The notes under the pieces are model-generated. The model made no database searches. It was not told the origin of the DNA and saw nothing but the letters and a program-made list of their open reading frames with translations. From assembly GCA_903813345.2 (NCBI GenBank), contig CAIIXF020000011.1, positions 33,348,166 through 33,412,165 of the forward strand: 64,000 bases of DNA. The letters run 5' to 3'. Origin of the DNA: Owenia fusiformis (taxonomy: Eukaryota; Annelida; Polychaeta; Sabellida; Oweniidae). Below, in pieces: positions 10,401 to 58,048 of the stretch. Numbering within the stretch: position 1 is the stretch's first letter; each line of letters starts with the position of its first letter. Position numbers and translations under genes: made by a program.

Positions 10401-10476
10401 TGTTATATGGTTTGGATTTAGTGACATGACTTCCAACTATTGATGTTGTGTTGCATTAGATTGTACAATTTTGCAG

Positions 10477-11251
10477 TATTATGGAGTCAAATAATGGGGA
10501 ACGCCTTCATGTACCCAGACCCACATGGATAGGGCCACTTGGATCAGGCATTGTTTCATCACCATTCTATGGGGCAGGCTCACCCCCGAATGTCCCTCCA
10601 AGGTCATATCTTCAGTTAGATTCTCCCCCTTTACATAGGCGGTCAATGGGATTTCTAACAAACCCACATCTCTCCCCAGGACGTTCACGTAAAATTTCCG
10701 CACCATCTAAACTGGAGGCCGATAAAATACTAGATGAAGATGAGGGGGGATTTCCAGTTAGAATGCGACATTCAGCACAAGTAATGCCAAATCGTCATAT
10801 TCGAACTCGAACCTTACCTGTGTCCCCTCTAGTCATTACACCTGACGGTGAACAGACTTCAAGATCTCTAAACGAATTACTTGTGCCTACCTCCCCAAAT
10901 CTGGATATACCTAGGGAGAAGGGATCAAGGTCCCCTAGGAATAGAAGGTCCTATGATGAAAGCACCTCAAGGGACCGTAATTCCTTATCTCCTCTCATCA
11001 CTCGTAAATTTCTGTCATTTAAAAACAAGCTTAGTAGCTCGCCTACGCATACAGATAATAGCGACCGTTCACCATCCCCCTCCCCATCGCCAAAGAGCCA
11101 CAGGAAATCATGGCGTAGTTTCAGCGTGAAAGACCTCTTACACCCACCGAGAAAACATGGGACAATAACTCCACCTATATTCAGCGAACTAGGCCTAGAT
11201 TATGATTTTGTCATCATCGATCACTGTCTCCATATAGATGCTGATTTTGAG
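10477..11251 (+). CDS. first coding exon of the ARHGAP20-like gene (Ser/Pro-rich N-terminus)
   Basis: This exon encodes 257 residues from ATG 10481 and ends at phase 0 with a GTATGT donor at 11252. An acceptor (tgtacaattttgcag) ends at 10476, four bases before the ATG, so the 5' UTR is spliced. The protein is rich in Ser, Pro and Arg: an SPPNVPP stretch near residue 30, a basophilic RSRKISAPS site near 70, an SPSPSPSPKS run near 205, and the basic SHRKSWRSFSVKDLL near 210-225. It looks like a disordered regulatory tail with many kinase and 14-3-3-type sites. Its link to the downstream DH-PH-RA exons is inferred from strand, phase and position, not from a domain match. It is clearly coding: the frame stays open, with codon-like variation, for 770 bases in AT-rich DNA. 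Confidence 0.75.
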
Positions 11252-12084
11252 GTATGTTCAAAAATCAAAACATATACTAGTACATGTATACAGGATATGT
11301 TTTTTCTTCATTTGAAGTCATTTATCTTTGCTAAGGATTACCTATATTGACTTTTGTTTTACAGATCAGATGATGAGATCTCCATCATGTAAGAGAACAT
11401 GTGTTACCTTGTGGCTGCATATGTCAACTTATGGATAAATAATGTTTATTTTTTATTTCAGAAATCAAGAGTAAATTAAAGGGTCTTGTTTCAAATACTA
11501 AGTATATAATTTGCAGTGAATAAGTACTAGGTGCTTCGGCCAATTCCATATGAAATCTGCGGTAGTTTGCATTTGTTCAACACTATTTCCCTACCTCTAA
11601 TCCAAAAAACATTTTTATGACTTATCATCATTACATTCATCTGTGGAACTGAAGTTCTTTTTTACCGATAGTGTTGATATAGAATATTTCCATTACACAC
11701 ACATCTGACACTGACAATGTTTCTACTCTAAAAAATATGATATGATATTCATCTTTTTTCTGTCTTGAAATGATATGATTAAACTATGATTTATAGACCC
11801 TGTGTTTGGACAAAATGCATTACAAATGATCCATACGGTGATAACATCCTGAAACATACTTTACATTTATCAAATTAGACATTTCATAAAGAATTTGTAT
11901 TTGAGGTTTGGACAAAAGTAACACGTTCCCATCAAAAAGATTTCATATCAGTATTGGCCATTTTATTTTTGGCATCTGTGAAATTGCCATTTCTGCTTCA
12001 TTATTTGGTAGTATATCTAAACTTTAAAAGTGTAACTTTATTTTATTTCCTCTTTGTTTACTCTCATTTTCTTGTTTTCACAAG

Positions 12085-22551: not shown

Positions 22552-24323
22552 CAGGCCCGTAAGACACTTTTCTCCAAGGGGGGTGCAGTTTTTAGCTTAC
22601 TAAAGAGAACATAAAATTGTCAATTTTTTTGCCGCGTAAATCAAATCACGTTAGACAGAGGGGGGGGGTCAGTTACTCCCTATATTGGTTTGGAAATTAA
22701 CAAATGCAACTTCCAAACGTTCCAATTGTTTTGTGGGGGGTGTGAGGAGTGGTCCACTCCCCCTAGAAAATTTTACAGTTTTGAGATGCTATTTTGTGCT
22801 TTCTGGGCACTTTCAAAGTGTAAGTCTCTAAGTTAGTAGTACGCCACCACCACAAGAATAAGAGTTGAGTGAATAAAAAACCGAGCATTCAGGGGGGTCT
22901 GGGGGTTCTCCCCCAGGAAAATTTTGAAATCTGCTTGTATTTGGAGCGAATTTGGAACCATCTGGTACGCCTGTGCGTTATGAGTTAATAAGAAAAATGT
23001 GAATTTTTTTTCAAATTCTTTTGGGGGTGTCAAAGAGGATGAGAGGGTGAAGTTGGGTGGGGTGCCAGTAGGGGAGCAAGGGGTTGTCCCCCAGAAACAT
23101 TGACCATATCAAGGTGCTATTTGATGATGTCTGGGCAATACATGAAATTCAGAATATTTATTTTGTTTTGTGGGGGATGTGAAGGGTAGCTAACTCTCCT
23201 AGAAAATTTTACAATTTAAAGATGACATTTGGTGCTTCTGGGCACTTTTAAAGGTATTAGTCAATAAAAACATTGAAAAACAATTACAATTTTTTTCAAA
23301 TTTTGGGGGTGTCAAAGAGGGGGGGGGGGGAGAGGGGTGCCAGAGGGAGAGATGGGGCTGGGGTGCCAGAGGGGGAGCAAGTGTTTGTCCCCCATATCAA
23401 AACTTACAATATCAAGGTGCTATTCCATTAGAAGTTTGGGCAAAAAGTGTCTGTGCCTAAAAGCGCATATTTCCCAAGAAAATTTTACAATTTTAAGATG
23501 CTATTTGGTGCTTTCTGGGCACTTTCAAAATGTATGAGTCAATAAAAAAATTTGAAAAATCTCAATTTTTTTTGGGGGGGGGGTGTTAAGGGGGGGGGGG
23601 GCTGCCAGAGGGGGAGGTGGAGTGGGGATGCCAGAGGGCGAGTAAGTGTTAGTCTTCTAGAATCATTAACTTTATCAAGGAGCTATTTGATGATGTCTGG
23701 GCAATTTAAAAGTGTCTGAGACAATACATAAAAACAAATTCAGAACTTTTCCATTGTTTTGTTTGGGGTGTGAGGGGTGGCCCACTCCCCCTAGAAAATT
23801 TTACAATTTTACGACGCTATTTGGTGCTTTCTGGGCATTTTCAAATTGTATGAGTCAATTAAAGAATTTGAGAAAATCACAATTTTTTTTTTGGGGGGGG
23901 GTCAAGAGGGGGGGGGGGGCGCCAGAGGGGGAGGTCAAGGGGGGGGGGGGGGCGCCAGAGGGGGAGGTTATGCAAGTGCAAGATGCAAGAGGGGGAGCAA
24001 GTCCCCCAGAAACACTAACTATATCAAGGAGCTATTTGATGATGTCTGGGCACTTTAAAAGTGAGACAAAACACTAAAATAAATTTAGAACTTTTCCATT
24101 GTTTCGTGGGGGTGTGAGGGGTGGCCAATACCCCTAGAAAATTTTACAATTTTAAGATTCTGTTTGGTGCTTTCTGGGTACTTTCAAAGTGTATGAGCCA
24201 ATGAAAAAAAATTACAAAAAAATATTTTTCAAAAAAAAAATTTAAAAATTTAAAATTTATTTTGGGGGGTAACAAAGGGGGGTGCGGTCGCACCCATCGC
24301 ACCCCCCCCATCTGACGGCCCTG
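22552..24323. mobile_element. G-rich non-autonomous element with internal tandem repeats
   Basis: The ends form a short imperfect inverted repeat, CAGGCCCGT at 22552 and ACGGCCCTG ending at 24323. They are flanked by the direct repeat ATATT, extendable to ATATTCA depending on where the left end is placed. Inside are about five diverged copies, 275-435 bp apart, of a block containing agaaaattttacaatttt and tttggtgctttctgggcac, separated by long G runs and purine-rich gccagagggggag repeats. There is no gene. It looks like an old satellite-bearing DNA element. Confidence 0.6.
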
Positions 24324-29061: not shown

Positions 29062-29067
29062 AACCAT
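29062..29067 (+). repeat. target-site duplication, left copy (AACCAT)
   Basis: AACCAT directly precedes the terminal AGTAGTAGAG of the element and recurs directly after its right end at 39402-39407. Six base pairs is the duplication size known for Polintons/Mavericks. Confidence 0.92.
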
Positions 29068-29148
29068 AGTAGTAGAGTATGTCCACCTGACTGGGATTTT
29101 GAATCCTGCTCAATTTAACATTGATTCCAATGGCATTCCAATGGCTTC

Positions 29149-29216
29149 CACGTGACTTATTGCCTGCTCTCTCTGCCTGCTCCCTCTCACGTGACTTTTC
29201 ATTCCCCTCTCACGTG
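29149..29216. promoter_or_regulatory. cluster of three CACGTG palindromes in the left TIR
   Basis: CACGTG occurs at 29149-29154, 29188-29193 and 29211-29216, each followed by act or actt; the last two are TCACGTGACTT. This is the core bound by bHLH-zip factors such as USF, MYC/MAX and TFE/MITF. The cluster is copied in the right TIR at 39253-39320. A regulatory role is inferred only from density and symmetry. Confidence 0.4.
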
Positions 29217-29389
29217 ACTTATCATCCGACGGTAGAGGGGACGGGGGAGTTGACGTAAACTGTCCCCACCCTGTCCCCTTTCTAATGTAAGAACCATACC
29301 TATCACTATAAAACTAGTGAAAATTACATTTCTGATTTAGATGCACCATGTCTTTATCGAGGTCACAGGAAAAACTTTTGGAAAGAGAA

Positions 29390-30560
29390 TAATTTTAGAG
29401 TATTTTTTCAGTCGTTATGGTTGAGTGAATGTTGCTTATTTTTGAGTTTGAGGCATTTAATCAACAAATGGATACTTGATTCTTACTCCTGAGACATTTT
29501 AGAGTATTTTTCCACTCTTCACGCTTGAGTGATTTTGGGTGATATCTGGAGTTTGAGACATTTTTTCACCAAATGGTCACTTGGTTCTTACTCCAAAGAC
29601 ATTTTAGAGTATTTTTTCAGTTGTTACAGTTGAGCGATTTTTGCCTTATTTATGAGTTTAAGGTATTTTATCACCAAATGACCACTTGATTCTTACTCCT
29701 GAGACATTTTAGAGTATTTTTCTAGTCTTCACGCCTGAGTGATTTTGGGTGATATCTGGAGTTTGAGACATTTTTTCACCAAATGGTCACTTGGTTCTTA
29801 CTCCAAAGACATTTTAGAGTATTTTTTCAGTTGTTACGGTTGAGTGATTTTTGCTCTATTTATGAGTTTAAGGTATTCTATCACCAAATGACCACTTGAT
29901 TCTTACTCCTGAGACATTTTAGAGTATTTTTCTAGTCTTCACGCCTGAGTGATTTTGGGTGATATCTTGAGTTTGAGACATTTTTTCACCAAATGGTCAC
30001 TTGATTCTTACTCCAAAGACATTTTAGAGTATTTTTTCAGTTGTTACAGTTGAGTGATTTTTGCTCTATTTATGAGTTTAAGGTATTTTATCACCAAATG
30101 ACCACTTGATTCTTACTCCTGAGACATTTTAGAGTATTTTTCTAGTCTTCACGCCTGAGTGATTTTGGGTGATATCTGGAGTTTGAGACATTTTTTCACC
30201 AAATGGTCACTAGATTCTTACCCCAAAGTCTTTTTAGAGTATTTTTTCAGTCGTTACGGTTGAGTGATTTTTTGAACTATTTATGAGTTTGAGGGAATCA
30301 CCGAATGGACACTTGATACTTACTACCGAGTCATATTAGAGTATTTTTCAAGTCTTCACGCCTGAGTGATTTTGGATGATATCTGGAGTTTGAGACATTT
30401 TTTCACCAAATGGTCACTAGATTCTTACCCCAAAGTCATTTTAGAGTATTTTTTCAGTCGTTACGGTTGAGTGATTTTTTGAACTATTTATGAGTTTGAG
30501 GGAATCACCGAATGGGCACTTGAGTCATATTAGAGTATTTTTCAAGTCTTCACGCTGTAG
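29390..30560. repeat. tandem array of ~105-bp monomers in ~210-bp dimers (left TIR)
   Basis: Two related half-units alternate. One contains cagttgttacggttgagtga, the other tctagtcttcacgcctgag. Both share attttagagtattttt, tcaccaaatg and ttcttactcc. The motif attttttcag marks dimers at 29402, 29611, 29821, 30031, 30241 and 30448, a period of 207-210 bp. Degenerate monomers continue to about 30855, beyond the inner edge of the TIR. Confidence 0.9.
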
Positions 30561-30607
30561 TAATTTTTGACAAGATCGCCTGCTCTCACAATTTAACATC
30601 GATTCCA

Positions 30608-31147
30608 ATGGGCCGTAAGGGGACGGGGAGTTGACGTAAACTATCCCCCACCCCTCCGTTTGACTGATTTTGGGCTATTTTGGAGTTTAAGGCATCTTTT
30701 TACCACATGAACACTTGCTATGCACCCCTGGTCATTTTAAGCATTTTTTGAGCTGAGTGATTTTTGCATTTTTTTTTTACCAGTCACAGTTGAATGATTT
30801 TTGCTCATTTTTGAGTTTGAGGCATTTTATCACCAAATGGATACTTGATTCTTACATGCTGACATAAGCACTTTTACAGCAGGACAATTTTATGCAGACA
30901 TAGTGGATATGCAAATGAACTGATAGTTTCATAACTTGCAGAACTATGTTTACTTAACTAATAACAGATAATAAAGTCTGTTTGAGTTTGAGATATGGGA
31001 GGGGGAGGAGGAGGAGGAAGGAGTACAGATGACATGTGGGACAAGTATATACAATTGATCAAAGGTTATGTTTACACTTCTATTCAGTTCTCTTGTGACT
31101 CCTTGTCACCTGTTTTGAATGAAATATATTAACTTATAATATAGTTG
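30608..31147. other. inner left region between TIR and ATPase gene
   Basis: It begins with a second copy of a motif from the outer end of the TIR (ggacggggagttgacgtaaa, about 30619-30638), then degenerate array monomers to about 30855. An inner inverted block (30859-30975) follows, then a purine-rich gaggaggaggagg tract near 31003-31020. No gene. The ATPase promoter should lie here; ttataatata just ahead of the start is a TATA-like candidate only. Confidence 0.5.
30859..30975. repeat. inner inverted repeat block, left copy
   Basis: It matches the complement of about 37590-37710 with moderate divergence. Shared words include cacttttacagcaggacaat, aaatgaactgata and ataacttgcagaac. It is separate from the near-perfect 1540-bp TIR and much more diverged. 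Confidence 0.75.
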
Positions 31148-32746
31148 ATGAAGTTAACTTGTCATTATTGCAGAGGCAGTATAGGAACCAACATGTTTTC
31201 TTGCTCTTTGTGTTCAGCAACCTTTTCCAGGGAAGATAATTTGAAGAGACATAGAGCATCAACTTCATGTGATGAAACATCCGTGGAATCAAATGGAGCT
31301 GATACGACTACTATTACCGAACCACGACTCCCATCAGAAATGAAATTGATTCATCCATTTACCATGATGATTGTGGGACCAACGGGCTCAGGCAAGTCGT
31401 CACTTGTCAATAAAATTATCCAAAATGTTGACCAAGTAATCAAACCTTCTCCTCAGCGGATAGTATGGTACTTTGGACAGTGGCAACCTCTATACGTAGA
31501 AATCAAAACCAAATATCCTCAAGTTGAATTTGTGATGGGACTGCCTGATGATTTCGGGGAGATAGATCCTTCTATGAATAATCTAATTATCATAGATGAC
31601 ATGATGGCTGATGCAACAAGAGACAAGCGAGTCTCAGAACTGTTTACTCGAGGATCTCATCACAGGAATCTGAGCGTTATTTGCATTCTTCAAAATTTGT
31701 TCCATCATGGACGGGAGAGCCGCACAATGAGTATCAATACACACTATATTGTCTTGTTTAAGAATCCGAGAGATCAGAGTCAAGTAAAAGTATTAGCCCA
31801 ACAGATGTACCCTGGTCATGCAGCAAAGCTTTTGACATCTTTCAGGCAGGCCACTACAAAACCTTTTGGCTATCTGCTTATTGATTTAAAACAACAAACA
31901 CCAGAGGAAAAGAGATTGATGGATGGGAATTGTCAGGAAAAATTGATAAATCAAAACAGAGAACCTGTTCATACCACATCCTTGGCAAACTATTACATTT
32001 CACGTGATGATCCAGTGCATCTGTCGGGTCCAAACTCCACGCTGACAAATATTAAGAAAGAAAACAATCTGGAAAATTCTCAGTCCAATGATCGGTTTAC
32101 TATGGATGTTAACACACACACAAAACCTACAATGCATCAATTTAACAATTGTAATGCAGATGAATGGCCATGGCAAAGTCTACTTCAAAGGCTTCCACAT
32201 TGTGGCGACTGTGGAGTGGTGATGATGTCTCCCACTGATGCCCAAAGGCACAAGCACCATTGTGAAGATGGACAAATGCCTCACAAGAAAATGCGCTACA
32301 ATGGAGATGTTGTCACAAACCCCACCTATTCAGAGATGAAAAATTCTGTCATCAGAGATATGTCTGACGAAATTAACAGACTAGGGAAAAAGTATGAAGA
32401 AAGAGGTATGACAAAGAAAGAGATCAGCGAAAAACTAAAGATGAAATTGTTCCCTGAAGCTAAATCTAGATTGCTGAAACGATATGGAAAGCTCCTCAGA
32501 AAGATAGTAGACCTCCAGGGTTCCGAGCTGCATCAAGATATTTTAGTTAACATTCAAGATCTAATTGAAGAAGGACTGCCTACATCGAAAGCCATAGGAA
32601 AATCATTTGCCAGATTTTCGACATTGATAGATGAAATTTTTGACATGGAAGAAGACAGCATGTCCGAATCTGACAATGGATCTAATTCTGGAGTTGATGA
32701 TGACATAGAGAGTGATACTTTAGAAGAAGTAGATGAATTAGAATAG
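31148..32746 (+). CDS. zinc-finger packaging ATPase (FtsK/HerA, A32-like)
   Basis: This 532-residue protein is predicted to pump the element's DNA into capsids, the role of the A32-like ATPases of Polintons and related viruses. Numbering from ATG 31148: a C2HC-type finger at about 19-41 (CSLC...H...C), Walker A GPTGSGKS near 77-84, Walker B LIIIDDMM near 146-153, an ILQNLFHHGRESR segment near 180-192 with candidate arginine-finger residues, and a second CxxC...HxxxC finger near 352-372. The C-terminal 30 residues are strongly acidic. An in-frame TAG lies just upstream. A splice-acceptor-like cattattgcag precedes a second ATG at 31193, so the true start could be Met16 in a spliced transcript. 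It stands alone on the plus strand and converges on the integrase. Confidence 0.9.
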   Translation: MKLTCHYCRGSIGTNMFSCSLCSATFSREDNLKRHRASTSCDETSVESNGADTTTITEPRLPSEMKLIHPFTMMIVGPTGSGKSSLVNKIIQNVDQVIKPSPQRIVWYFGQWQPLYVEIKTKYPQVEFVMGLPDDFGEIDPSMNNLIIIDDMMADATRDKRVSELFTRGSHHRNLSVICILQNLFHHGRESRTMSINTHYIVLFKNPRDQSQVKVLAQQMYPGHAAKLLTSFRQATTKPFGYLLIDLKQQTPEEKRLMDGNCQEKLINQNREPVHTTSLANYYISRDDPVHLSGPNSTLTNIKKENNLENSQSNDRFTMDVNTHTKPTMHQFNNCNADEWPWQSLLQRLPHCGDCGVVMMSPTDAQRHKHHCEDGQMPHKKMRYNGDVVTNPTYSEMKNSVIRDMSDEINRLGKKYEERGMTKKEISEKLKMKLFPEAKSRLLKRYGKLLRKIVDLQGSELHQDILVNIQDLIEEGLPTSKAIGKSFARFSTLIDEIFDMEEDSMSESDNGSNSGVDDDIESDTLEEVDELE

Positions 32747-32804
32747 ACTGTGTTACCATGGATGTATATGGAACATAAACTTTCCTCTGTAAAATTATGT
32801 TAAT

Positions 32805-32852
32805 TTTATTTGTATTTTTATAGATATCTGTTTTGTATACAATACTAATAAA
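32805..32852. terminator. facing poly(A) signals between ATPase and integrase
   Basis: AATAAA at 32847-32852 on the plus strand lies about 100 bp after the ATPase stop. AATAAA on the minus strand (32805-32810) lies about 150 bp after the integrase stop. The two signals overlap tail to tail, typical of convergent genes in compact elements. Confidence 0.5.
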
Positions 32853-32957
32853 TAATTTTATGTATCCATCAATCAAGGATTTGTTTGCATTGACTACACA
32901 ATATATCTGTGTGCTCTCTCAATTAGTACATGGCTGTATATTTATCTTATAAAACAT

Positions 32958-34103
32958 TCACAAGTCCTTCAACCTAGTTTCACTAATCCACTCATTAAAT
33001 TTACTAGGGAAGCCCTTCCATGACACCAAAACCTCTCTCAGTCTTCCACGATGACGGTGCTTCAGTATTTTATCAACTCTAAAGTTTGTACCAGGATGAA
33101 TCTTCTGCATCTCATCTTCATATACACTGCCTTCAATCTCTTCTCCTTTCAAATCAACCAATGTATATACAGGTGGTCTCGTGGCTCTCCGAGACTTCAC
33201 AATAAAATATTCTTCACTCCATTGTTGATCATAGCCTCGGTCAAATGCCGAGCGATAGGCAGACAATCTTACATTGTCACCTACATCAAACTTGAATTTG
33301 ATTAGTTTGCTTCGTGCAGTTTGTTTGGACAAATAAATATTTTCCCATACACTATACTCATTTTCTTTGGTGACATCTTTTGGAGCCATTTTAATTGAAC
33401 GATGATAACTCTCATTGTATGATTTAACCAGATCCTGCAATTTGTCAATCCAGCGCCTTCGTCCCGTGGCAAAAAAGTAACGATGCATTTTGTTTTTCAT
33501 AGTTCGTATTGCTCTCTCAGCCAGGCTAGCTTTTACATCTGTTCTTGTTGTAAAGTAGTGAATTTTTCTTCGATGCAGAAGTCCTTTGACCAGTCTATTA
33601 TCATACTCTCTTCCAGAATCACTTCTAATTTTCCATGGTTGACGACCCTTGGCAAATACGCGTTCCATAGCTTGTACCATCTCCTCTGCCTTTTTAGTTT
33701 TGAGTGGTTCTGCCCATAGGTATTTACTGAGTGTGTCTATAAAAAAGGCGACATAACGATACTGATCATTTTGGTCAGCTGTATCGATGAAGACTCCAGT
33801 GTCACAATCCCATTGTTCATCAATGTATCGCACCTCTACCTTTCTACGTAAAAACTTCCTCTTAACCTTTCTGAATAGGGTGTATGACTCTTGCGATTTC
33901 AACCATTGTTTCACTTCATTCTTGGTCACACCTTTATCCTTGACTTTCCGCCAAAATTGGGATATGCCCGAATAAGATCCAGGTTGGTCTGAATCATAAT
34001 AGGTCTTTTTCAACATACGCGTTTTTACTCTAGATAATGCTGTTATTTTAGCCTCAGGTGAATTATTTTGTGTTTTTGAAGTCAAAATGTTTTTCTTCTT
34101 CAT
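32958..34103 (-). CDS. retroviral-type integrase with C-terminal chromodomain
   Basis: This 381-residue integrase should cut and join the element's ends into host DNA, giving the 6-bp duplication. The N-terminal part has the GSYSGISQFWRKVK and VKQWLKSQESYTLF region typical of metazoan Polinton integrases of the C. elegans F54H12.3 type. The rve catalytic core follows, with D101 in QWDCDTG, D162 in RSDSGREY and E196 in KASLAERAIRTMK. Residues 339-381 form a chromodomain (FRVDKILKHR ... VSWKGFPSKFNEW) that could steer insertion to marked chromatin. All three acidic residues are present and there is no break. ATG 34103 is the first in frame, and a TATA-like gtatata lies about 50 bp upstream at 34151-34157. 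Confidence 0.93.
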   Translation of the reverse strand: MKKKNILTSKTQNNSPEAKITALSRVKTRMLKKTYYDSDQPGSYSGISQFWRKVKDKGVTKNEVKQWLKSQESYTLFRKVKRKFLRRKVEVRYIDEQWDCDTGVFIDTADQNDQYRYVAFFIDTLSKYLWAEPLKTKKAEEMVQAMERVFAKGRQPWKIRSDSGREYDNRLVKGLLHRRKIHYFTTRTDVKASLAERAIRTMKNKMHRYFFATGRRRWIDKLQDLVKSYNESYHRSIKMAPKDVTKENEYSVWENIYLSKQTARSKLIKFKFDVGDNVRLSAYRSAFDRGYDQQWSEEYFIVKSRRATRPPVYTLVDLKGEEIEGSVYEDEMQKIHPGTNFRVDKILKHRHRGRLREVLVSWKGFPSKFNEWISETRLKDL

Positions 34104-34688
34104 ACTTCAATGTTAGGTGATGAACTGCCGAGATAGTGACTCACATTGAATATATACTTGACAGAATTATAGTTTGATAATAGAACCTTAGTAACCTTTG
34201 TATCTTGTGGGTGTTTGGCAAATTTACCTCTCTGAGATTAATTATCAAACTGATCTACTGTAAAGATTTCAAAGCAATTTGGAATTGGTTATTTTCATGA
34301 AGGTATATTTACACTATTTCTTCTCACGAAAACTTTGGGACAGTATAGTGAAGCAATGAGACAGCATACATGCTTCTGGACTGAAGAAGATTGACATATC
34401 ATTAGGATAACTTTTTGCTGATAACCAAAATACAATACATGGACACTAACTATATCATGAGTATGAATATATTAATTCTTTATTTTTCCTCTTGTTACAT
34501 AATAATAACATTACTATGAGTATGTTCTTAAAAACATTTCAATAACATAAAATACAGATAAATATTTCCATTGTTTGATAACATCTTCTTATATATGTTA
34601 CATGACAATTTAGTTGTAATTAAATACATAAATCACATCTAATAACTAGACTAAGATATACAAATATATATTATTATACTTATGAGTA
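34104..34688. other. intergenic region between integrase start and protease stop
   Basis: There is no gene here. The minus strand carries AATAAA at 34479-34484, about 205 bp after the protease stop, the likely 3' end for the capsid-gene transcripts. The integrase promoter should lie in the left part. Confidence 0.5.
34479..34484 (-). terminator. poly(A) signal behind the virion gene block
   Basis: AATAAA on the minus strand, downstream of the protease and upstream of the integrase start. It could serve all four virion-type genes if they share transcripts. Confidence 0.45.
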
Positions 34689-35141
34689 CTAATATTGATA
34701 TTGAGGTGCTCTCACAGAATTTATAGTGTCATTCACAATTTTATCGTTAAGTTTTTTGTTTTCTGAAAATATATTTTCTACAATGTTTTTCATGCTTAAA
34801 CCTTCACACTTTAGTAAAAGAAACGTTATGCAAAAATGTCCACATTTTATGCTCGAAGGTGATTGGACGGCTTTTTTATTGTTTATCACCTGTCTAGAAA
34901 AGTTATCAAAACCATAAAACGAAAATGGTTTTCCTAGCGGATCAAAGAAGTCGATAGTTGTATCATTAACATAGTAAGCTAGCCAATGTTCTCCTAAGTA
35001 ATCTTTTGGCATACTATTTACAACGAAGTAATCACCTTCCTGTAAAATACTAGGCATCTGGTCACTTGCAAACACCCCAAGGAATCCCTTTTCGGGGAAA
35101 GAATGTTGTGATAACATCTGACTTATTTCATTCGTATCCAT
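34689..35141 (-). CDS. adenain-type cysteine protease (PRO)
   Basis: This 150-residue protein has the fold signature of the adenovirus-type/Ulp1-like maturation proteases found in Polintons, which cut capsid precursors. His52 lies in GEHWLAYYV, Asp67 in FFDPLGKP, Gln93 in VQSPSS and Cys100 in SIKCGHFCITFLL. The order His-Asp-Gln-Cys and the Q-to-C spacing of seven match the family. It is shorter than the roughly 200 residues common for adenain. Its ATG lies one base after the stop of the capsid gene (TAA-A-ATG), the tightest junction in the block. It probably needs coupled or re-initiated translation or its own transcript. Confidence 0.87.
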   Translation of the reverse strand: MDTNEISQMLSQHSFPEKGFLGVFASDQMPSILQEGDYFVVNSMPKDYLGEHWLAYYVNDTTIDFFDPLGKPFSFYGFDNFSRQVINNKKAVQSPSSIKCGHFCITFLLLKCEGLSMKNIVENIFSENKKLNDKIVNDTINSVRAPQYQY

Positions 35142-35142
35142 T

Positions 35143-36477
35143 TTAATCTAGAATGACATTACGTGAAGCATCAACTTCGAATTTCTGAGGGAATGTAGCC
35201 ATTAACATAAGGTTGACTGGTTCTGCTAAAGCTTGAGCGAACTGTACATTCACCTTCACGTTCCCTCTCTTAATGAGTGGGAATGTAAACTGCTTGCTAG
35301 TTTTATCTTGAGCCTGGATGTCAAACTTAAAGATGGCGCACCCGTTCTTAAAATTTTCTTGATTTATAATTAAACCTTCTTCGTCTTCAATATCAGAAAA
35401 CAACCTTTGATATTCTCTTGTATACAGGTTATTCAGTGTATTCGTAAAAACAGGTCTCAGTGCTCTCTCCGGTACACTACTTCCATCGACTTCAACTTCT
35501 AAGTGATTTACAAAGAAATGTTGATAGTTAAACGGGTTCAGTTTATAGTCTCCACTGGCTGCTTTGGAAGACACCATAAAACAGAGCAAACGTGATGGAA
35601 CACTACCTTGAAAACAATCATATACACTGTAGTTCATTTGTCCAGCAGGAATGGTGAATACCTTAATGACATTTTGTTCATATGGATATATAGCATTCCT
35701 TTGCTTCAATTCTGTGTTGTAAGCATCTATTATTCCTGGCGCTGGACTAATCATAGGAACTCTTAAGTAAGAATCAAGAATTTTTACTTGATAATTAGCA
35801 TTTTCCTCATTTGATAACAATTGAAAATTAAAACGTGAAGGGGTCAGTTTGATTTTTATCTCAATTCCATTTAATATAAACTTATTCATTTCAAACACAT
35901 CCTCTAGAAATGGACCTTGTAAATCGACAGCTTGGGAAGTGTATGTTTTTTGAAGTCTTTCTTGCAATCCCATATTGTTTCCACTGACTGCATCAACATC
36001 GTCCATGTATTCAACATTTTTAATAACAGGACTGTCTTTGTAAAAGAATTCACTTTGTAAACGTGAGTTGTGCGCATCTGTAGAAGAGTGAAGTAAGCGT
36101 TTTATATGTGCCTTGTATGGATAGTTCATCATAGAAGAAGTGATAACTTGTTGCTGTAACATGACATCGACTTGTTCGAACATGGCATGCATCCATCCAG
36201 TGACAGGAGCAACATTGCTAAGAGGGACACTGTCCAACACTGTTCCATCTCCTTTAGTTAACTGTACACGGACATGTAGATTACTTCTTTTCAAGTCAAT
36301 GAATTGGCTTGAATTATTCGGTATCACAAACTCCAGGGGGTTTCCGGCAGCAATCGGATTAATAGGTCTGATCTCCACATAATTAATAGCTGTAACTGAA
36401 GATTGAGTTGGAGGAGTTTGGAAAAAGTCTAAATTCGTGTTCATTACATCACCGCTGTTTCTTATTTTGAAGGCCAT
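35143..36477 (-). CDS. probable major capsid protein (F54H12.2-like)
   Basis: This 444-residue protein resembles the family often labelled uncharacterized protein F54H12.2 in invertebrate genomes. In C. elegans that gene lies beside the integrase-like F54H12.3, a pairing repeated here. Visible family features are the N-terminal NYVEIRPINP and FVIPNNSSQFIDL, then LHVRVQLTKGDG and a middle MFEQVDVMLQQQVI segment. The length and beta-rich, low-charge composition suit a small double jelly-roll capsid protein, and its position between a protease and two small virion-type genes supports that. The fold is inferred, not shown. Its ATG lies 16 bases inside the end of the upstream basic-protein gene. 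No disruption is seen. Confidence 0.8.
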   Translation of the reverse strand: MAFKIRNSGDVMNTNLDFFQTPPTQSSVTAINYVEIRPINPIAAGNPLEFVIPNNSSQFIDLKRSNLHVRVQLTKGDGTVLDSVPLSNVAPVTGWMHAMFEQVDVMLQQQVITSSMMNYPYKAHIKRLLHSSTDAHNSRLQSEFFYKDSPVIKNVEYMDDVDAVSGNNMGLQERLQKTYTSQAVDLQGPFLEDVFEMNKFILNGIEIKIKLTPSRFNFQLLSNEENANYQVKILDSYLRVPMISPAPGIIDAYNTELKQRNAIYPYEQNVIKVFTIPAGQMNYSVYDCFQGSVPSRLLCFMVSSKAASGDYKLNPFNYQHFFVNHLEVEVDGSSVPERALRPVFTNTLNNLYTREYQRLFSDIEDEEGLIINQENFKNGCAIFKFDIQAQDKTSKQFTFPLIKRGNVKVNVQFAQALAEPVNLMLMATFPQKFEVDASRNVILD

Positions 36478-36854
36478 ATTGAGAATTGTGATTTGCTTTT
36501 TTTCCCCGACTTTGTCTTTTTCTTTTCTGTTTTTCTTTTCTTATCAAGACTCTTCTTAATCTGATTGCTTAAAGGTTTACTGTCTGCATTCGCAAGTTTT
36601 CTTTTTAAAGTTGCTTCGTTGTGTATGTAGTCACTCTCTATATTTTTCTGACGTTTAATGTCTGACTTCGCTCGTTCCACAACAGCTTGGATTGGTGAAA
36701 CCACTTTAACTGGTTCTTTTATAGATTCAACAGGGATCCATCTGGTTCTCTGCTTCCCAAACCCTATCTGTGTTGAAATTCTCCCCTCTCTACTCGCTCT
36801 GATCAACGTTTGCCAGGTGTTGGGATTATCTTTGTAGGTTTCTAGTCTCGGCAT
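36462..36854 (-). CDS. small basic protein, candidate DNA-condensing or core protein
   Basis: This 130-residue protein opens with PRLETYKDNPNTWQTLIRAS and becomes very basic. The last 45 residues hold long Lys-rich runs (KKRKTEKKKTKSGKKSK), ending QFSIWPSK. The charge, small size and place next to the capsid gene suggest a virion DNA-binding protein, in the manner of adenovirus core proteins; there is no domain match to prove it. Its start follows the previous stop by four bases and its last 16 bases overlap the capsid gene in another frame. Confidence 0.6.
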   Translation of the reverse strand: MPRLETYKDNPNTWQTLIRASREGRISTQIGFGKQRTRWIPVESIKEPVKVVSPIQAVVERAKSDIKRQKNIESDYIHNEATLKRKLANADSKPLSNQIKKSLDKKRKTEKKKTKSGKKSKSQFSIWPSK

Positions 36855-36858
36855 AATT

Positions 36859-37275
36859 CTACTTGATTTGTTTTAAATGAAGTGTACAGATTATTCTATG
36901 AGAGTTAAATGAGATCGGTTGATCGTTGTTTGCTTTTATATGAATTTGAACTCGATCAAACTGGGTTCTTGCAAGATCTAAATAAAGAACCGGGTTAAAT
37001 GTTCTCCAGCCTTCGTCTGGACTTATTCTTCTTAATATCTGTTGTTTCTCTCCACTGATAATGCTTGTATCAATCAGGTCACAAAATATGTCAATGTATT
37101 CGATATCTGGAGAAATCTCGAGTCTGGGTAGCTTAATGTCGTAAAGTCCAAGCTTCCAATCACCATCTAGATTCAGGTAGTTTGGTAGTTTAACTGTAAA
37201 GTCTCTATTAGTATTGAATGGGAAATAATCCAGAGAATCTGTACTTTCCATAAATATAAACATATCATTTGGCAT
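36859..37275 (-). CDS. small conserved virion-type protein, possible penton/minor capsid
   Basis: This 138-residue protein is first in the minus-strand block. It starts with a short stretch ending DYFPFNTNRDFTVKLP, then NLDGDWKLGLYDIKLPR. The pattern 'yfp.Nt...F.v.Lp..l.L.g.w.vgL.ei..p' recurs, as I recall, in proteins beside F54H12.2-like capsid genes in metazoans. The role is unknown to me; a minor capsid or penton-like part is a guess from position and beta-rich composition, and it is short for a single jelly-roll. A TATA-like atttataag lies about 60 bp upstream at 37333-37341. Confidence 0.6.
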   Translation of the reverse strand: MPNDMFIFMESTDSLDYFPFNTNRDFTVKLPNYLNLDGDWKLGLYDIKLPRLEISPDIEYIDIFCDLIDTSIISGEKQQILRRISPDEGWRTFNPVLYLDLARTQFDRVQIHIKANNDQPISFNSHRIICTLHLKQIK

Positions 37276-37861
37276 TGTTAAAGCTATATGTTGACGACTC
37301 TGCTATTAACTCACTTCTGGTTTTATCAAAAACTTATAAATTATCACTGACACACATTCATTGTTTATCCAGATGTGATTAATATTTGTATGACAAGAAA
37401 CTTTGACCTGTGATGTAGTGATATGATGGTTCTTCAGCTTATGCAACATCACACTTTGTTAACAATTTATTATCTGTTATTAAGTAAACATTGTTCTGCA
37501 AGTTATAAAACTATGTCAACAAACTTTGACCTATGATGTAAAGTGACAGATGAATATGTAGCTTATACAACATCACACTATGTTATCAATTTGTTATCTG
37601 TTTTTATAAGTAAACATGGTTCTGCAAGTTATAAACATATCAGTTCATTTACATATCCACTACTAGTATGTTAGGGTGAAATTGTCCTGCTGTAAAAGTG
37701 TTTATGTTAGCATTTGATCTTGTGAGACCTAGAAAGTGTTATTTGGTGAAAAATGCCTAAAACTCCCAAAATAAGTGGGAATCAGTCAACCGTTACAGAA
37801 ATCACTCAACCATGATGACTGAAAAAATACTCTAAAATGACTCAGGAGTAAGAACCAAGTG
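37276..37861. other. inner right region between virion genes and TIR
   Basis: Non-coding. It contains the candidate promoter for the minus-strand block, a diverged tandem pair (37398-37634), the right copy of the inner inverted block (about 37590-37710), and one or two degenerate monomers of the TIR array (37740-37855). Confidence 0.55.
37398..37634. repeat. diverged tandem pair, about 120 bp each
   Basis: Copies begin aaactttgacct at 37398 and 37521. Both run through acatcacact.tgtta.caat and end gttctgcaagttataaa. Differences include substitutions and short gaps, so the duplication is older than the near-identical TIRs. Confidence 0.75.
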
Positions 37862-39401
37862 TGGAATCGATGTTAAATTGTGAGAGCAGGCGATCTTGTC
37901 AAAAATTACTACAGCGTGAAGACTTGAAAAATACTCTAATATGACTCAAGTGCCCATTCGGTGATTCCCTCAAACTCATAAATAGTTCAAAAAATCACTC
38001 AACCGTAACGACTGAAAAAATACTCTAAAATGACTTTGGGGTAAGAATCTAGTGACCATTTGGTGAAAAAATGTCTCAAACTCCAGATATCATCCAAAAT
38101 CACTCAGGCGTGAAGACTTGAAAAATACTCTAATATGACTCGGTAGTAAGTATCAAGTGTCCATTCGGTGATTCCCTCAAACTCATAAATAGTTCAAAAA
38201 ATCACTCAACCGTAACGACTGAAAAAATACTCTAAAAAGACTTTGGGGTAAGAATCTAGTGACCATTTGGTGAAAAAATGTCTCAAACTCCAGATATCAC
38301 CCAAAATCACTCAGGCGTGAAGACTAGAAAAATACTCTAAAATGTCTCAGGAGTAAGAATCAAGTGGTCATTTGGTGATAAAATACCTTAAACTCATAAA
38401 TAGAGCAAAAATCACTCAACTGTAACAACTGAAAAAATACTCTAAAATGTCTTTGGAGTAAGAATCAAGTGACCATTTGGTGAAAAAATGTCTCAAACTC
38501 AAGATATCACCCAAAATCACTCAGGCGTGAAGACTAGAAAAATACTCTAAAATGTCTCAGGAGTAAGAATCAAGTGGTCATTTGGTGATAGAATACCTTA
38601 AACTCATAAATAGTGCAAAAATCACTCAACCGTAACAACTGAAAAAATACTCTAAAATGTCTTTGGAGTAAGAACCAAGTGACCATTTGGTGAAAAAATG
38701 TCTCAAACTCCAGATATCACCCAAAATCACTCAGGCGTGAAGACTAGAAAAATACTCTAAAATGTCTCAGGAGTAAGAATCAAGTGGTCATTTGGTGATA
38801 AAATACCTTAAACTCATAAATAAGGCAAAAATCGCTCAACTGTAACAACTGAAAAAATACTCTAAAATGTCTTTGGAGTAAGAACCAAGTGACCATTTGG
38901 TGAAAAAATGTCTCAAACTCCAGATATCACCCAAAATCACTCAAGCGTGAAGAGTGGAAAAATACTCTAAAATGTCTCAGGAGTAAGAATCAAGTATCCA
39001 TTTGTTGATTAAATGCCTCAAACTCAAAAATAAGCAACATTCACTCAACCATAACGACTGAAAAAATACTCTAAAATTATTCTCTTTCCAAAAGTTTTTC
39101 CTGTGACCTCGATAAAGACATGGTGCATCTAAATCAGAAATGTAATTTTCACTAGTTTTATAGTGATAGGTATGGTTCTTACATTAGAAAGGGGACAGGG
39201 TGGGGACAGTTTACGTCAACTCCCCCGTCCCCTCTACCGTCGGATGATAAGTCACGTGAGAGGGGAATGAAAAGTCACGTGAGAGGGAGCAGGCAGAGAG
39301 AGCAGGCAATAAGTCACGTGGAAGCCATTGGAATGCCATTGGAATCAATGTTAAATTGAGCAGGATTCAAAATCCCAGTCAGGTGGACATACTCTACTAC
39401 T
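37862..39401 (-). repeat. right terminal inverted repeat, 1540 bp
   Basis: Exact inverted partner of 29068-30607, with the same ~210-bp dimer array (37910-39080) and the same outer end with CACGTG at 39253, 39276 and 39315. The ends are AGT...ACT. Equal length with no indel suggests recent formation, or homogenisation during replication. Confidence 0.95.
39253..39320. promoter_or_regulatory. cluster of three CACGTG palindromes in the right TIR
   Basis: Mirror copy of the cluster at 29149-29216. It faces inward toward the minus-strand virion genes, whose start is about 2 kb away. Confidence 0.4.
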
Positions 39402-39407
39402 AACCAT
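39402..39407 (+). repeat. target-site duplication, right copy (AACCAT)
   Basis: Directly abuts the terminal ACT of the element and matches 29062-29067. Confidence 0.92.
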
Positions 39408-40495: not shown

Positions 40496-41364
40496 GTATT
40501 GAAAGTGTCATTTTGGTTACTAGTATCAATATTCTTTTCCAGAAATTGAAAAAATGTTTGAGAAAAACGAAAATATTTCTTGATTTTCAGTAAGATCTAT
40601 CAAGATTTACTAGGAAGATAAGATTGTGAAATTCTACAAAAGCAAGTAAAATTTTCCATTCATAAAATGTTTTAAAGGCAAGTTTTTTTTAACTAATCTC
40701 TCATAAATTAAAAACTGAATAGCTGCCCATAAAAATGACAGAACTTTAATTCAACATTTTGAAGGTCAATTCATAAACAATGATAAAAGTTTAAAACTTT
40801 GATCGTAACACAAAAAACTTTTCATCGCAACTTTTTTACTTTCTCGAAACACACATTTAATCTTTTTAAAATGTGTAATTTACAATAGCGTATACCAGTG
40901 ATAGATGCTCATGGGTTATTTTGAAAGAAATGCGATAATAAAAGTGAATCAAAATTGAGAAAGAGCCTTACAATTTCTATATTGAGTCTTTATATAGCTC
41001 TTTTGGTTTTCATATATCATTCTTTTCACGTTATTGTTGATATTAAGTTGATCAATTAATATACAAACTGAGGTGACATTTACTATATTTTATTTTAATC
41101 TTCCAAGTGTTTTATTTTGCCTCTTTAACATCATGTTTAAACTTACCGATAGGGATGATATATTAAGATAACATTGGAGATGAATATAAATGAGTTTGAA
41201 TGACTAAAAACTTCCGAGTGACGCATTTATAAAAAACAGTATTAACCTCCACAGTTTGGTCTGGAAGTTTCATATTGATTGAGCTATTGTATTTGTTTAG
41301 AAAAATGAGTTGAAATGCGCATTGCCCAATGCCCAAGATCTGGGGTATAAAAGTATGCAAACTG

Positions 41365-42001
41365 TATGACCATTACCCCTTAGAAAGCCTTGTTCTTATG
41401 TTTCTTTCTATGTATTTCAAGGTACAAAGGATCCCAGAGTATGACCATTACCCCTTAGAAAGCCTTTCTTTCTATGTTTTTCAAGGTACAAAGGATCCCA
41501 GAGTATGACCATTACCCCTTAGAAAGCCTTGTGCTTATGTTTCTTTCTATGTATTTCAAGGTACAAAGGATCCCAGAGTATGACCATTACCCCTTAGAAA
41601 GCCTTTCTTTCTATGTTTTTCAAGGTACAAAGGATCCCAGAGTATGACCATTACCCCTTAGAAAGCCTTGTGCTTATGTTTCTTTCTATGTATTTCAAGG
41701 TACAAAGGATCCCAGAGTATGACCATTACCCATTAGAAAGCCTTGTTCTTATATATTTCTTTCTATGTATTTCAAGGTGCAAAGGATCCCAGAGTATGAC
41801 CATTACCCCTTAGAAAGCCTTGTTCTTATGTTTCTTTCTATGTATTTCAAGGTACAAAGGACCCCAGAGTATGACCATTACCCCTTAGAAAGCCTTGTTC
41901 TTATGTTTCTTTCTATGTATTTCAAGGTACAAAGGATCCCAGAGTATGACCATTACCCCTTAGAAAGCCTTGTTCTTATGTTTCTTTCTATGTATTTCAA
42001 G
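41365..42001 (+). repeat. tandem repeat of a splice acceptor plus exon start, nine acceptor copies
   Basis: The unit contains a pyrimidine tract, tatttcaag and then gtacaaaggatcccagagta. The gtac junction recurs at 41422, 41486, 41561, 41625, 41700, 41777, 41852, 41927 and 42002. Spacing is 75 bp, with two 64-bp copies and one 77-bp copy. The last junction is the true start of the DH exon. Since 75 is 25 codons, the last copies form an open frame in register with the exon. Confidence 0.93.
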
Positions 42002-42112
42002 GTACAAAGAATCCCAGAATATGACCACTATCTGAGTGATCTCTTAGATGAGACTGATCACAATCACCCCGATTATGAGGAACTAAGCAGAGCTGCTACC
42101 AAAGTACAAAAT
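42002..42112 (+). CDS. ARHGAP20: DH-domain exon (VQRIPEYDHYL)
   Basis: This exon encodes 37 residues, phase 0 to phase 0, between tatttcaag and GTAAGT. VQRIPEYDHYLSDLL followed by a T..HPDY..L motif is the conserved last third of a DH (Dbl homology) RhoGEF domain, which catalyses nucleotide exchange on Rho GTPases. Human ARHGAP20 is usually described with PH, RA and RhoGAP domains but no DH domain, so a DH part on the same gene is notable. The first part of the DH domain must come from upstream exons. It is preceded by eight extra copies of its own acceptor. Confidence 0.88.
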
Positions 42113-42115
42113 GTA

Positions 42116-42320
42116 AGTGCAATTTCAATATGTAACATAGTGCGATTTCAACTATAAATATACTATAAAGTGTGATTTCAACCATATATATATATACTAC
42201 AAAGTACGATTTGAACGATAAATATACTACAAAATGCAATTTCAACCATATATATACTACAAAGTGCAATTTCAACGATAAATATACTACCAATATGCAA
42301 CAAGTGCAGTTGCAACAGTA
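42116..42320. repeat. degenerate ~35-bp minisatellite touching the donor site
   Basis: About six units of the form tgcaatttcaaccatatata and tactacaaag begin within the intron's first bases, right after the GTAAG donor of the DH exon. The copies are diverged. Confidence 0.75.
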
Positions 42321-55800: not shown

Positions 55801-57856
55801 CTTTCTTTTAATATATTAAGTTCAAGGTCTTGGCTTATTGTTTCACAACCATGGCATATAAAATCGAACCATTGCTATTCAAATCATTTTTGAATATTTT
55901 CTTTATTATTTTGTTCATATAATGCCACTTACATGGGGATGCTTGTAACACCAATATTTTGCCAATTATGGGCTGTATGAAAGTTAATTCAATCATAGAA
56001 TTATTATATTTTATTGAAAAACTGCAAAACATAAAAAATGGCAGATTTGAATTGAGCAAAATTTAACATATACAATTATAAATTGTAAAAAAGTTTATTT
56101 TATCGACTATTTAGCCGAATTATCATCACCTTAACAAAGTAAAACTTAAGGTAATCATTTGTGGGTCAATTATTCTTAAGAATCTAGCAAATAATTAAGA
56201 AATAAACAAGGGTGAGCATTCATAAAATAGGAACAGCATCACAAATATGACATATGGTACGGCAAAAAATAAGGACCTGTGAGAAAATAAGATGAATACT
56301 TTATTTGAACCAGTATGTTCTATCTAAACAGGTAAGTATATTTAAGCTTCATGTAAAATTCTGTCCAAATAGGCAAGCTTTATTAGATAAACTTAAATTT
56401 ACAATAAAAAAAGTTCTTGATGTGGCATTTTATAACTACAGGACAAGTGGCTCCCTCTCAGGAACAATTTATCAGCGAGAAGTTGTTCCGTTTAATTTGG
56501 AGCCTTGTCCCAATGTTTATCTGTTTACCGAGACCTGAATTATGTCAATCTACATTTATCTCATTAATTAAGGTACGCAGCAGGTAGCTTTGAATTACAA
56601 ATGAAAGTTTGAATCGCACATGTGTTAGAACTTCTTAAGATTATGCAAGTAAATAAAGATATGTATCAATTAGGAGAATAAGAGGATGAGAACACGTTGT
56701 CCTAAGGATTTAATTAGACCTTAAATACAATAGACACATTAGTTTATCATTGTACAATCCACTTACAGAGGTTCAAACAAGGTAAAGTTATAAAGCAATA
56801 CCTACAACAAAGACCGCAATGAAATAATAAAGGTGTGGAAAATGCCGAAATCGAAGCTTTACATATGCGTAATAGAAATATTATTTGTCAGAAATGTATT
56901 TATTTTGGTTTGTTGCCTAAAAGTAGTATACAAGTCTGTGTTTCAAATACCTGAGGTAAAATTCTTGAAGTTGATGAAAACAAAGGATTATGGGTATTTG
57001 ACCGTGAAATATCCATTAAAATTATATCAATTCGTCTTGGTTTCTTAAAGTTCAAAGAAATTGGGTTGACGAGTTATATAATTTGGTTTCGGGCAAGTTT
57101 CTAATCTTTATGTTTTCGTCAATTTAAGTTTTAAAAGTCATAATTTTGGTTATTGGATATACCAGACTGGGAATCAGTAGACAACAACATTTCAAAAAGT
57201 ATAATACTTAATTGTAATACTGTAATTTCAATTGATTATAATGAATAACTAATTGGGATGTCTAGCCATATAATGATGATGATGTCATCTGTACGTCATT
57301 GTTATAACCTTATAAAAAGATACTTCATTTTTTGATCAGTTTTCATATTTTATCAATGAAATACAAAAAATAAAAATGTGAAATGTATGGTTCAGTACCA
57401 AAGAAATGTATATAGTGATCATATTAGTCTATAGTAATGTTCCTACAGAAGCTCATGCAGTTGAACTTTTTCTGAACTGTATGTAAGAGACATCGAATCA
57501 AAACATAAAACCACAATGTGATCATCTAACAAACATGCCTTGGTGCCAAACATATTTGAATATCTAAAACGCAGTGGCAAGACTAGGACATAACTTTGGT
57601 CAAAAAGTTGTGATGTTGCATATTCCAAACTGATTAAAACAATCATTCGAGTGAATTAATGCCTATGTAATTTACTGATGCATTTTACTAAATGAAGTCA
57701 CTATGTTTTGACTGCTTCGTTTGTTACAGAAAATCCAAACGATTCCTGGTATTTCTCGATAATTAGGAACATTAATTTAAAGAATTTCTCCTGAATTTGG
57801 TGATATAAAGAGAGGAGAGAATGTTTTATTTCATATTGGTGTTGTTGTGTTTGCAG
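52806..57856 (+). other. intron, nothing else recognised
   Basis: A 5-kb AT-rich intron with no convincing exon, RNA gene or element. Short frames in it lack splice context. Confidence 0.5.
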
Positions 57857-58048
57857 ATCCAGTACAGCGTTTAAACTAAAACATAGGATTCGAGTACGTG
57901 AAATGTGGACAGCGTCTTGCCTTGACGAAGTTTGCGAATCCCACAAGACACATGATAAGTCCTTTGTGATTGGCTGGCCAACAACAAACGTCGTGGCGAC
58001 ATTCTCGACACCAGAGCTCAAAGAAACCTGGGAAAATAAACTTAAACA
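57857..58048 (+). CDS. ARHGAP20: PH-domain exon with the MWTASCLDEVCE signature
   Basis: 192 bases, acceptor tgttgtgtttgcag, donor GTACGT, phase 2 to 2. It encodes STAFKLKHRIRVREMWTASC, then KSFVIGWPTTNVVATFSTPE and the C-terminal PH helix ELKETWENKLKQ. MWTASC.DEV and SFV.GWPT.N.VATFS are family hallmarks of ARHGAP20. This is the strongest single identification of the host gene. Confidence 0.96.

What the first reader, a model, noticed from the sequence alone, without database searches (positions are those of the whole stretch)
29068..39401. A PolB-less Polinton that keeps a full virion and integration gene set
Integrase, packaging ATPase, adenain-type protease, probable capsid protein and two small virion-type genes are all intact between perfect-length TIRs, yet no DNA polymerase B is present and no gap could hold one. 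Known Polintons depend on their own protein-primed PolB. This element is either a satellite that borrows replication proteins from a helper element or the host, or a distinct lineage with another replication mode. At 10.3 kb it is well below the usual 15-20 kb.
Basis: partly seen in the sequence, partly recalled or inferred. Interest (0 to 1): 0.92.

Follow-up and report, generated by a model that had tools for sequence, protein, structure and literature searches.

The report
Polinton without its own polymerase
A virus-like mobile element in an animal genome keeps its genes for building particles and inserting into chromosomes but has no gene to copy its own DNA, and it sits in a genome with many similar elements and with relatives that still carry that gene, so it probably lives as a satellite of them.

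Summary
Window 29068-39401 is a 10,334-bp element with 1,540-nt identical TIRs, a 6-bp duplication (AACCAT) and six intact genes (packaging ATPase, RVE-chromo integrase, adenain-type protease, probable capsid, basic and 138-aa proteins), without PolB or room for one. Its genome (498 Mb) holds 80 loci with this capsid gene; of 74 spanning over 1,200 bp, 16 have a PolB match within 15 kb and 58 do not (PolB counts are lower bounds). Four other PolB-less elements are bounded by TIRs and 6-bp duplications (8.2-10.5 kb), one PolB-bearing relative too (15.2 kb). PolB-bearing and PolB-less forms are interleaved in the capsid tree (at least five changes). Genes of PolB-less copies have dN/dS of 0.1-0.45. 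The window element is a mosaic. All six bounded elements begin AGTAG. Best reading: recurrently arising Polinton satellites, replicated in trans by PolB-bearing kin while keeping virion and integration genes. Trans-replication is inferred, not shown.

The parts
29062..29067 (.). left 6-bp target-site duplication AACCAT
   Evidence: read
29068..30607 (+). left terminal inverted repeat, 1,540 nt, terminus AGTAGTAGAGTATG
29149..29218 (+). three CACGTGAC motifs near the outer end of the TIR (repeated in the right TIR); TGACGTAA and TATAAAA lie further in; promoter role inferred
   Evidence: no other CACGTGAC in the 53.7 kb of window outside the element
29393..30560 (+). about 105-bp tandem units alternating in two types (210-bp higher-order period) inside the TIR
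30856..30975 (+). subterminal inverted repeat beyond the TIR (85% to 37590-37713)
   Evidence: query inL against L001, converted to window coordinates
31148..32746 (+). packaging ATPase, 532 aa, long type: zinc finger + A32-like P-loop ATPase + C-terminal zinc finger and helical part
32958..34103 (-). RVE integrase with chromodomain, 381 aa
34689..35141 (-). adenain-type cysteine protease, 150 aa
35143..36477 (-). probable major capsid protein, 444 aa
   Evidence: fold not tested
36462..36854 (-). basic protein, 130 aa (33 K/R, 13 D/E), possible DNA-binding virion protein
36859..37275 (-). small conserved protein, 138 aa, candidate minor capsid (penton) protein
   Evidence: PDB profile search not significant
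37862..39401 (-). right terminal inverted repeat, 1,540 nt
39402..39407 (.). right 6-bp target-site duplication AACCAT

Best explanation
The element is a PolB-less, Polinton-derived satellite virus/transposon. It makes its own integrase, packaging ATPase, maturation protease and capsid proteins, but its linear DNA is copied in trans by the protein-primed DNA polymerase of PolB-bearing Polintons in the same genome, which act on a shared AGTAG terminal signal. Such satellites arise repeatedly from PolB-bearing Polintons by loss of the PolB part and exchange modules with them. Shown: anatomy, absence of PolB, PolB-less families beside PolB-bearing kin, shared termini, repeated change of PolB presence, module exchange, low dN/dS. 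Inferred: that kin PolB replicates them, that virions form, and the direction of change (loss rather than gain).
For: (1) 16 of 74 capsid loci spanning over 1,200 bp have a PolB match within 15 kb; 58 do not. (2) Four further PolB-less elements are bounded by TIR and 6-bp duplication: 10,547, 9,040, 8,168 and 9,678 bp; a bounded PolB-bearing one is 15,159 bp. (3) PolB-less L010 and PolB-bearing C519 are 89.6% identical over 5.3 kb of shared genes; both L010 TIRs match the end of C519 next to the 138-aa gene (85% over 457 nt), with the same first 14 terminal bases. (4) All six bounded elements start AGTAG, five of them AGTAGT, a short tandem repeat of the kind used for sliding or jumping back in protein priming (role recalled). 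(5) dN/dS between two copies with intact capsid ORFs, the bounded C9 element and C3:2820296, where no PolB was found nearby (L005/L008): capsid 0.16, integrase 0.13, protease 0.35, 138-aa gene 0.11, basic gene 0.29 on four changes. (6) Capsid tree: at least five gains or losses of PolB forced by well-supported branches. (7) The window integrase groups with a PolB-bearing element (99/99), its capsid with L009/L010 (99/95), its ATPase with the long type of L016 and L057 (99/99); such exchange suggests replication in the same cells. (8) Near-identical copies of the L011 type (up to 99.7% over 2.9 kb) show recent spread.
Against: No direct evidence of replication, virions or expression. AGTAG termini may serve the integrase rather than the polymerase. 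Low dN/dS was not tested for significance and could be partly inherited from PolB-bearing ancestors; for the window copy itself synonymous sites are mostly saturated. The PolB searches scored only 38 of 200 and 38 of 116 candidates and used two PolB types, so some 'PolB-less' loci may carry an undetected PolB, and some lie near contig ends; only the bounded ones are certain. No PolB-bearing helper with the window's own TIR was found. The PolB label is not clustered on the capsid tree beyond chance (shuffled mean 5.3-5.4 changes). Some PolB-less copies are damaged: L010's integrase reads in two overlapping frames, L006 and L007 have a stop in the capsid gene, and in the C3 element the integrase is in two ORFs and no basic gene was matched.
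Confidence: 0.6

Rival explanations
1. The PolB-less families replicate without any family-B polymerase: the integrase inserts copies made by host polymerases (or by copying of the donor during repair), and capsid genes serve transfer between cells or hosts.
For: Loci without a PolB match are the majority (58 of 74), and several capsid groups with 8 or more members show none by search. PMC10120064 (passages) says that many protist elements of this supergroup lack a detectable polymerase and suggests an alternate mode, while adding that the enzyme may just be undetected.
Against: Terminal AGTAG repeats are kept as in PolB-bearing elements. Repeated change of PolB presence is easier if the function is supplied in trans. 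No replication gene is recognisable in the element.
Confidence: 0.2
2. Ordinary internal-deletion derivatives: dead or dying copies made by abortive replication of PolB-bearing Polintons, with intact genes only because they are young.
For: L010 looks like a recent PolB-less derivative of a C519-like element (capsid dS 0.11). C9:19508496 is 99.1% identical over 981 bp beside the capsid to a PolB-bearing copy and has no PolB in the next 8 kb. Several PolB-less copies have broken genes.
Against: The L011 type has multiplied (8 loci by capsid identity; the five compared are 94.5-99.7% identical in their longest blocks) with dN/dS below 0.5 in five genes. The bounded elements lack PolB but keep capsid, protease, ATPase and 138-aa genes. 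The window element is mosaic, not a simple deletion of any PolB-bearing copy seen.
Confidence: 0.15
3. Assembly artefact: PolB was dropped from a collapsed repeat.
For: The element has long identical TIRs, which can confuse assemblers.
Against: Five PolB-less elements at different places each have matching TIRs and their own 6-bp duplication, with different gene orders.
Confidence: 0.02

Closest known systems
Polintons/Mavericks, probably group I (with Vsr-like insertion in PolB)
   Same: RVE integrase, A32-like ATPase, adenain-type protease, capsid-type genes, long TIRs, 6-bp duplication. PolB of a relative in this genome has a weak, not significant Vsr-like match (E 0.053); a Vsr-like insertion is the group I mark per PMC10328495 (passages).
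   Different: No PolB; 8-10.5 kb instead of 15-20 kb.
Polinton-like viruses (PLVs) and protist elements without detectable polymerase
   Same: Capsid and ATPase genes without pPolB (PMC11071308, PMC10120064: passages).
   Different: PLVs mostly lack the RVE integrase and carry other replication proteins. This element keeps the integrase, has no recognisable replication protein, and lies in an animal genome among PolB-bearing kin.
Virophages (Lavidaviridae)
   Same: Works like them in the proposed life style: own capsid, replication helped by another genetic element.
   Different: The helper proposed here is a close relative, not a giant virus; the virophages in PMC3671162 (passages) carry helicase or polymerase genes.
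Non-autonomous DNA transposons
   Same: Depend on an enzyme supplied in trans (general definition in PMC6431247, passages).
   Different: Those usually keep termini and lose genes (recalled); this keeps virion and integration genes and lacks the polymerase.

Membership tests
Polinton/Maverick | RVE (DDE) integrase, often with chromodomain | tested here: met
   PF00665 4.4e-10 and PF00385 7.1e-7
Polinton/Maverick | long TIRs and 6-bp target-site duplication | tested here: met
   (the 6-bp rule is recalled)
Polinton/Maverick | protein-primed DNA polymerase B | tested here: not met
   no space; six of 19 gap ORFs scanned with Pfam, none; one PolB of the same genome best E 0.11 in the window
Polinton/Maverick | A32-like packaging ATPase and adenain-type protease | tested here: met
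Polinton/Maverick | double jelly-roll major and single jelly-roll minor capsid proteins | tested here: inconclusive
   capsid gene shared with PolB-bearing kin; structure prediction unavailable; PDB profiles gave nothing convincing
Polinton/Maverick | size 15-20 kb | tested here: not met
   10,334 bp; PolB-bearing relative 15,159 bp
Polinton-like virus (PLV) | no pPolB, mostly no RVE integrase, another replication protein | tested here: not met
   RVE integrase present, no replication protein recognised; definition from PMC11071308 (passages)
Satellite virus with own capsid | replication depends on a helper | not testable with these tools
   candidate helpers exist in the genome but dependence needs experiments

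The most novel reading that the evidence does not exclude
This animal genome hosts a Polinton community that works as a shared-polymerase system: most capsid-bearing elements (58 of 74 loci, by search) have given up PolB, a minority supplies the polymerase for all through a common AGTAG terminal signal, and modules reassort among them. Polintons would thus have capsid-bearing, integrating satellites of their own kind that arise over and over.
Probability: 0.35. Interest if true: 0.88.

Novelty: new variant of a known kind. Interest (0 to 1): 0.74.

Why it matters
Polintons are known for making their own polymerase. If most copies in a genome keep capsid and integrase under selection but borrow the polymerase, the virion genes are what selection guards: indirect evidence that Polintons really move as particles and meet in the same cells. 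Surveys can miss such elements: PMC4028283 (passages) set aside Polinton-like elements under 10 kb as incomplete, and three of the five bounded PolB-less elements here are under 10 kb.

Tried and rejected
No relatives were found in the viral and prokaryotic collections at the sensitivity of the scans: five viral-contig scans and one genome-contig scan; one further scan could not run. PHROGs gave only weak hits. The galectin hit of the capsid in the PDB (E 3.6e-5) vanished with the family profiles and is taken as chance. A PC4-like identity for gene X was considered; its PDB profile found nothing, so it is not claimed. Gene X as a constant companion of PolB was considered and is not claimed: it is in five PolB-bearing elements, but no match was found in the flanks read of a sixth (L050, L051). 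Fusion of two small ORFs to explain the long ATPase was considered; searches with those ORFs (E 1e-2) did not match the window or L016. A 'PolB-only segment' was considered: 11 of 27 PolB loci have no capsid match within 15 kb, but several are degenerate or short pieces, so it is not claimed. TIR identity was not used to date the insertion, because sequence just inside the TIRs is only 85% inverted-repeat identical, which suggests TIR homogenisation. Rows left out of counts: capsid-tree labels were known for 19 of 30 genome rows, 11 were unknown and not counted; the integrase and ATPase trees used 11 and 18 rows, without some split or near-duplicate genes.

Papers: seen as passages only: PMC11071308, PMC4028283, PMC10120064, PMC10328495, PMC6431247, PMC3671162. 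Search listings only; from titles and abstract starts none was about PolB-less capsid-bearing Polintons of animals. Two relevant papers (adintoviruses; nematode Polinton polymerases) are recalled and not held, so absence from print is not claimed.
Full report
What is there. The element spans 29068-39401 (10,334 bp) and is flanked by the 6-bp duplication AACCAT. Its TIRs are 1,540 nt and 100% identical; most of each TIR is an array of about 105-bp units in two alternating types. Just inside the TIRs a shorter inverted repeat (30856-30975 against 37590-37713) is only 85% identical, so the perfect TIR identity may reflect homogenisation during replication and not only youth. Six ORFs fill the interior: a 532-aa ATPase on the + strand; and integrase, protease, 444-aa capsid candidate, 130-aa basic protein and 138-aa protein on the - strand. 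Pfam identifies ATPase, integrase and protease. Walker motifs and the adenain catalytic pattern are present. Gaps are at most 586 bp, and no PolB trace was found. Host exons with an ARHGAP20-type PH domain (57804-58094) and a RhoGEF match (41723-42154) lie downstream on the + strand, so the element probably sits in or near a host gene of an animal. Of the ATPase relatives listed (120 of 150), those naming an organism are six from bivalves and one from an assembly of a bivalve gill symbiont. The species was not given.

Relatives. The capsid has few relatives in the protein collection (3 and 6 hits). The window's own genome (498,259,871 bp, 525 contigs) has 92 capsid matches, merging to 80 loci, 74 of them spanning more than 1,200 bp, some of these split copies. 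Of ten 10-kb stretches read, nine match all six window genes and L018 five (no basic gene). Seven (L009-L015) have the order 138-aa gene, basic gene, capsid, protease, integrase, ATPase on one strand; L016, L017 and L018 differ. Some genes are split or shortened (L009, L010, L015, L017, L018).

PolB. A 1,204-aa ORF in L021, next to the capsid of L014, is taken as the polymerase: it is related to a 1,233-aa ORF in L024 with DANALY and GNSAYG motifs, and following frames of L021 have GNSAYG and MDTD (motif roles recalled). It has a weak Vsr-like match (PDB 1odg, E 0.053); a Vsr-like insertion marks group I Mavericks (PMC10328495, passages). Pfam did not recognise it. In some copies the gene lies in pieces, possibly through introns. 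Two genome searches with these proteins (67 and 56 matches; 38 of 200 and 38 of 116 candidates scored) place PolB within 15 kb of 16 of the 74 loci and not of 58. PolB counts are lower bounds, and a few loci lie on short contigs.

Bounded elements. With TIRs and 6-bp duplications resolved, PolB-less: window 10,334 bp (AACCAT); C12:14378287-14388833, 10,547 bp (GATTGG); a C9 element, 9,040 bp (ATTGCT); a C1 element, 8,168 bp (TAGAAA; gene order ATPase, integrase, 138-aa, basic, capsid, protease); a C3 element, 9,678 bp (TATCTC; five of the six genes matched, integrase in two ORFs). PolB-bearing: C12:33251975-33267133, 15,159 bp (ATTTGG). L011 has inverted repeats but its exact ends were not resolved; of C519 one end was recognised. 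All six bounded elements begin AGTAG, five of them AGTAGT. A gene X lies in five PolB-bearing elements (L013, L014, L015, L017, C519); no match to its profile was found in the window or in the other stretches held, which include the bounded PolB-less elements but also flanks of a sixth PolB-bearing one, C4:25105257 (the profile was built from those five). A 49-nt stretch inside the window element (37401-37447) is 84% similar to part of the TIR of the PolB-bearing L013 (E 1.6e-6).

Origin. In the capsid tree PolB-bearing and PolB-less rows are interleaved, and well-supported branches force at least five changes among 19 labelled rows. Shuffled labels need about as many (mean 5.3-5.4), so presence of PolB hardly follows the capsid tree. 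PolB-less L010 and PolB-bearing C519 share 5.3 kb at 89.6% identity. Both TIRs of L010 correspond to the end of C519 next to the 138-aa gene, including identical first 14 bases, as if the PolB part had been replaced by an inverted copy of the other end (inference). The window element is not a simple deletion of a copy seen here. Its capsid groups with L009/L010 (99/95, 71% identity), its integrase with the PolB-bearing L013 (99/99, 64%), and its ATPase with P0007, L016 and L057 of a long type (99/99), apart from the short type (100/100). The tree tool warned of long branches and of partly filled rows in the ATPase tree.

Activity. Five loci of the L011 type are 94.5-99.7% identical in their longest pairwise blocks (shorter blocks down to 92.8%). 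Between two with intact capsid ORFs (L005/L008) dN/dS is 0.16 capsid, 0.13 integrase, 0.35 protease, 0.29 basic (4 changes only) and 0.11 for the 138-aa gene. L004/L008 gives 0.16, 0.15, 0.34, 0.42 and 0.21, and L005/L006, where L006 has a stop in the capsid, 0.16, 0.12, 0.29, 0.44 and 0.21 in the same order. L005 lies in the bounded C9 element; for L004, L006 and L008 the lack of PolB rests on the searches (for L004 also on inverted repeats in L011). No significance test was made. For the window against kin, synonymous sites are mostly saturated. Against: some copies are damaged (stops in L006, L007; split integrase in L010 and the C3 element).

Mechanism. Most likely, kin PolB primes on the shared terminal repeat and copies the satellite, capsids made by satellite or helper package it, and the satellite integrase inserts it with a 6-bp duplication. 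The duplication and the gene set are shown. Trans-replication, packaging and the role of the TIR motifs (three CACGTGAC, TGACGTAA, TATAAAA) as inward promoters are inferred.

Known or new. PolB-less members of the wider supergroup are known in protists (PMC10120064, passages), and PLVs mostly lack pPolB (PMC11071308, passages). What nine paper searches did not list is a set of PolB-less, integrase- and capsid-bearing Polinton derivatives in an animal, recurrent and beside PolB-bearing kin; most subscription papers are not held. By the polymerase criterion it is not a canonical Polinton; it is a new variant of that kind.

Noticed in passing
window 41723-42154 and 57804-58094, + strand: RhoGEF-like and ARHGAP20-type PH-domain exons of a host gene; an upstream ORF at 10460-11347 may be another exon, so the element may lie in an intron.
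   Followed up: partly
L013, L014, L015, L017, L048: A conserved gene X of unknown function lies in five PolB-bearing elements; no match in the PolB-less ones nor in the flanks read of a sixth PolB-bearing one.
   Followed up: partly
window 31148-32746; L016:911-2629; L057:2391-4115: Two forms of packaging ATPase coexist: a long one with an N-terminal zinc finger and a C-terminal zinc-finger/helical part, and a short one of about 230 aa, often followed by two small ORFs.
   Followed up: partly
L019, L021: The PolB gene of these elements lies in pieces, and in both one break falls at the same conserved position (after LIGN), which suggests introns.
   Followed up: no
G000, 11 of 27 PolB loci: PolB matches without a capsid match within 15 kb, several of them degenerate; PolB-only elements were not excluded.
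   Followed up: no
window 41326-42054: Tandem array of about 75- and 139-bp spacing that overlaps the RhoGEF-like ORF and repeats part of it in frame.
   Followed up: no
window 22695-24260: G-skewed local repeat family (five copies of about 129 nt).
   Followed up: no
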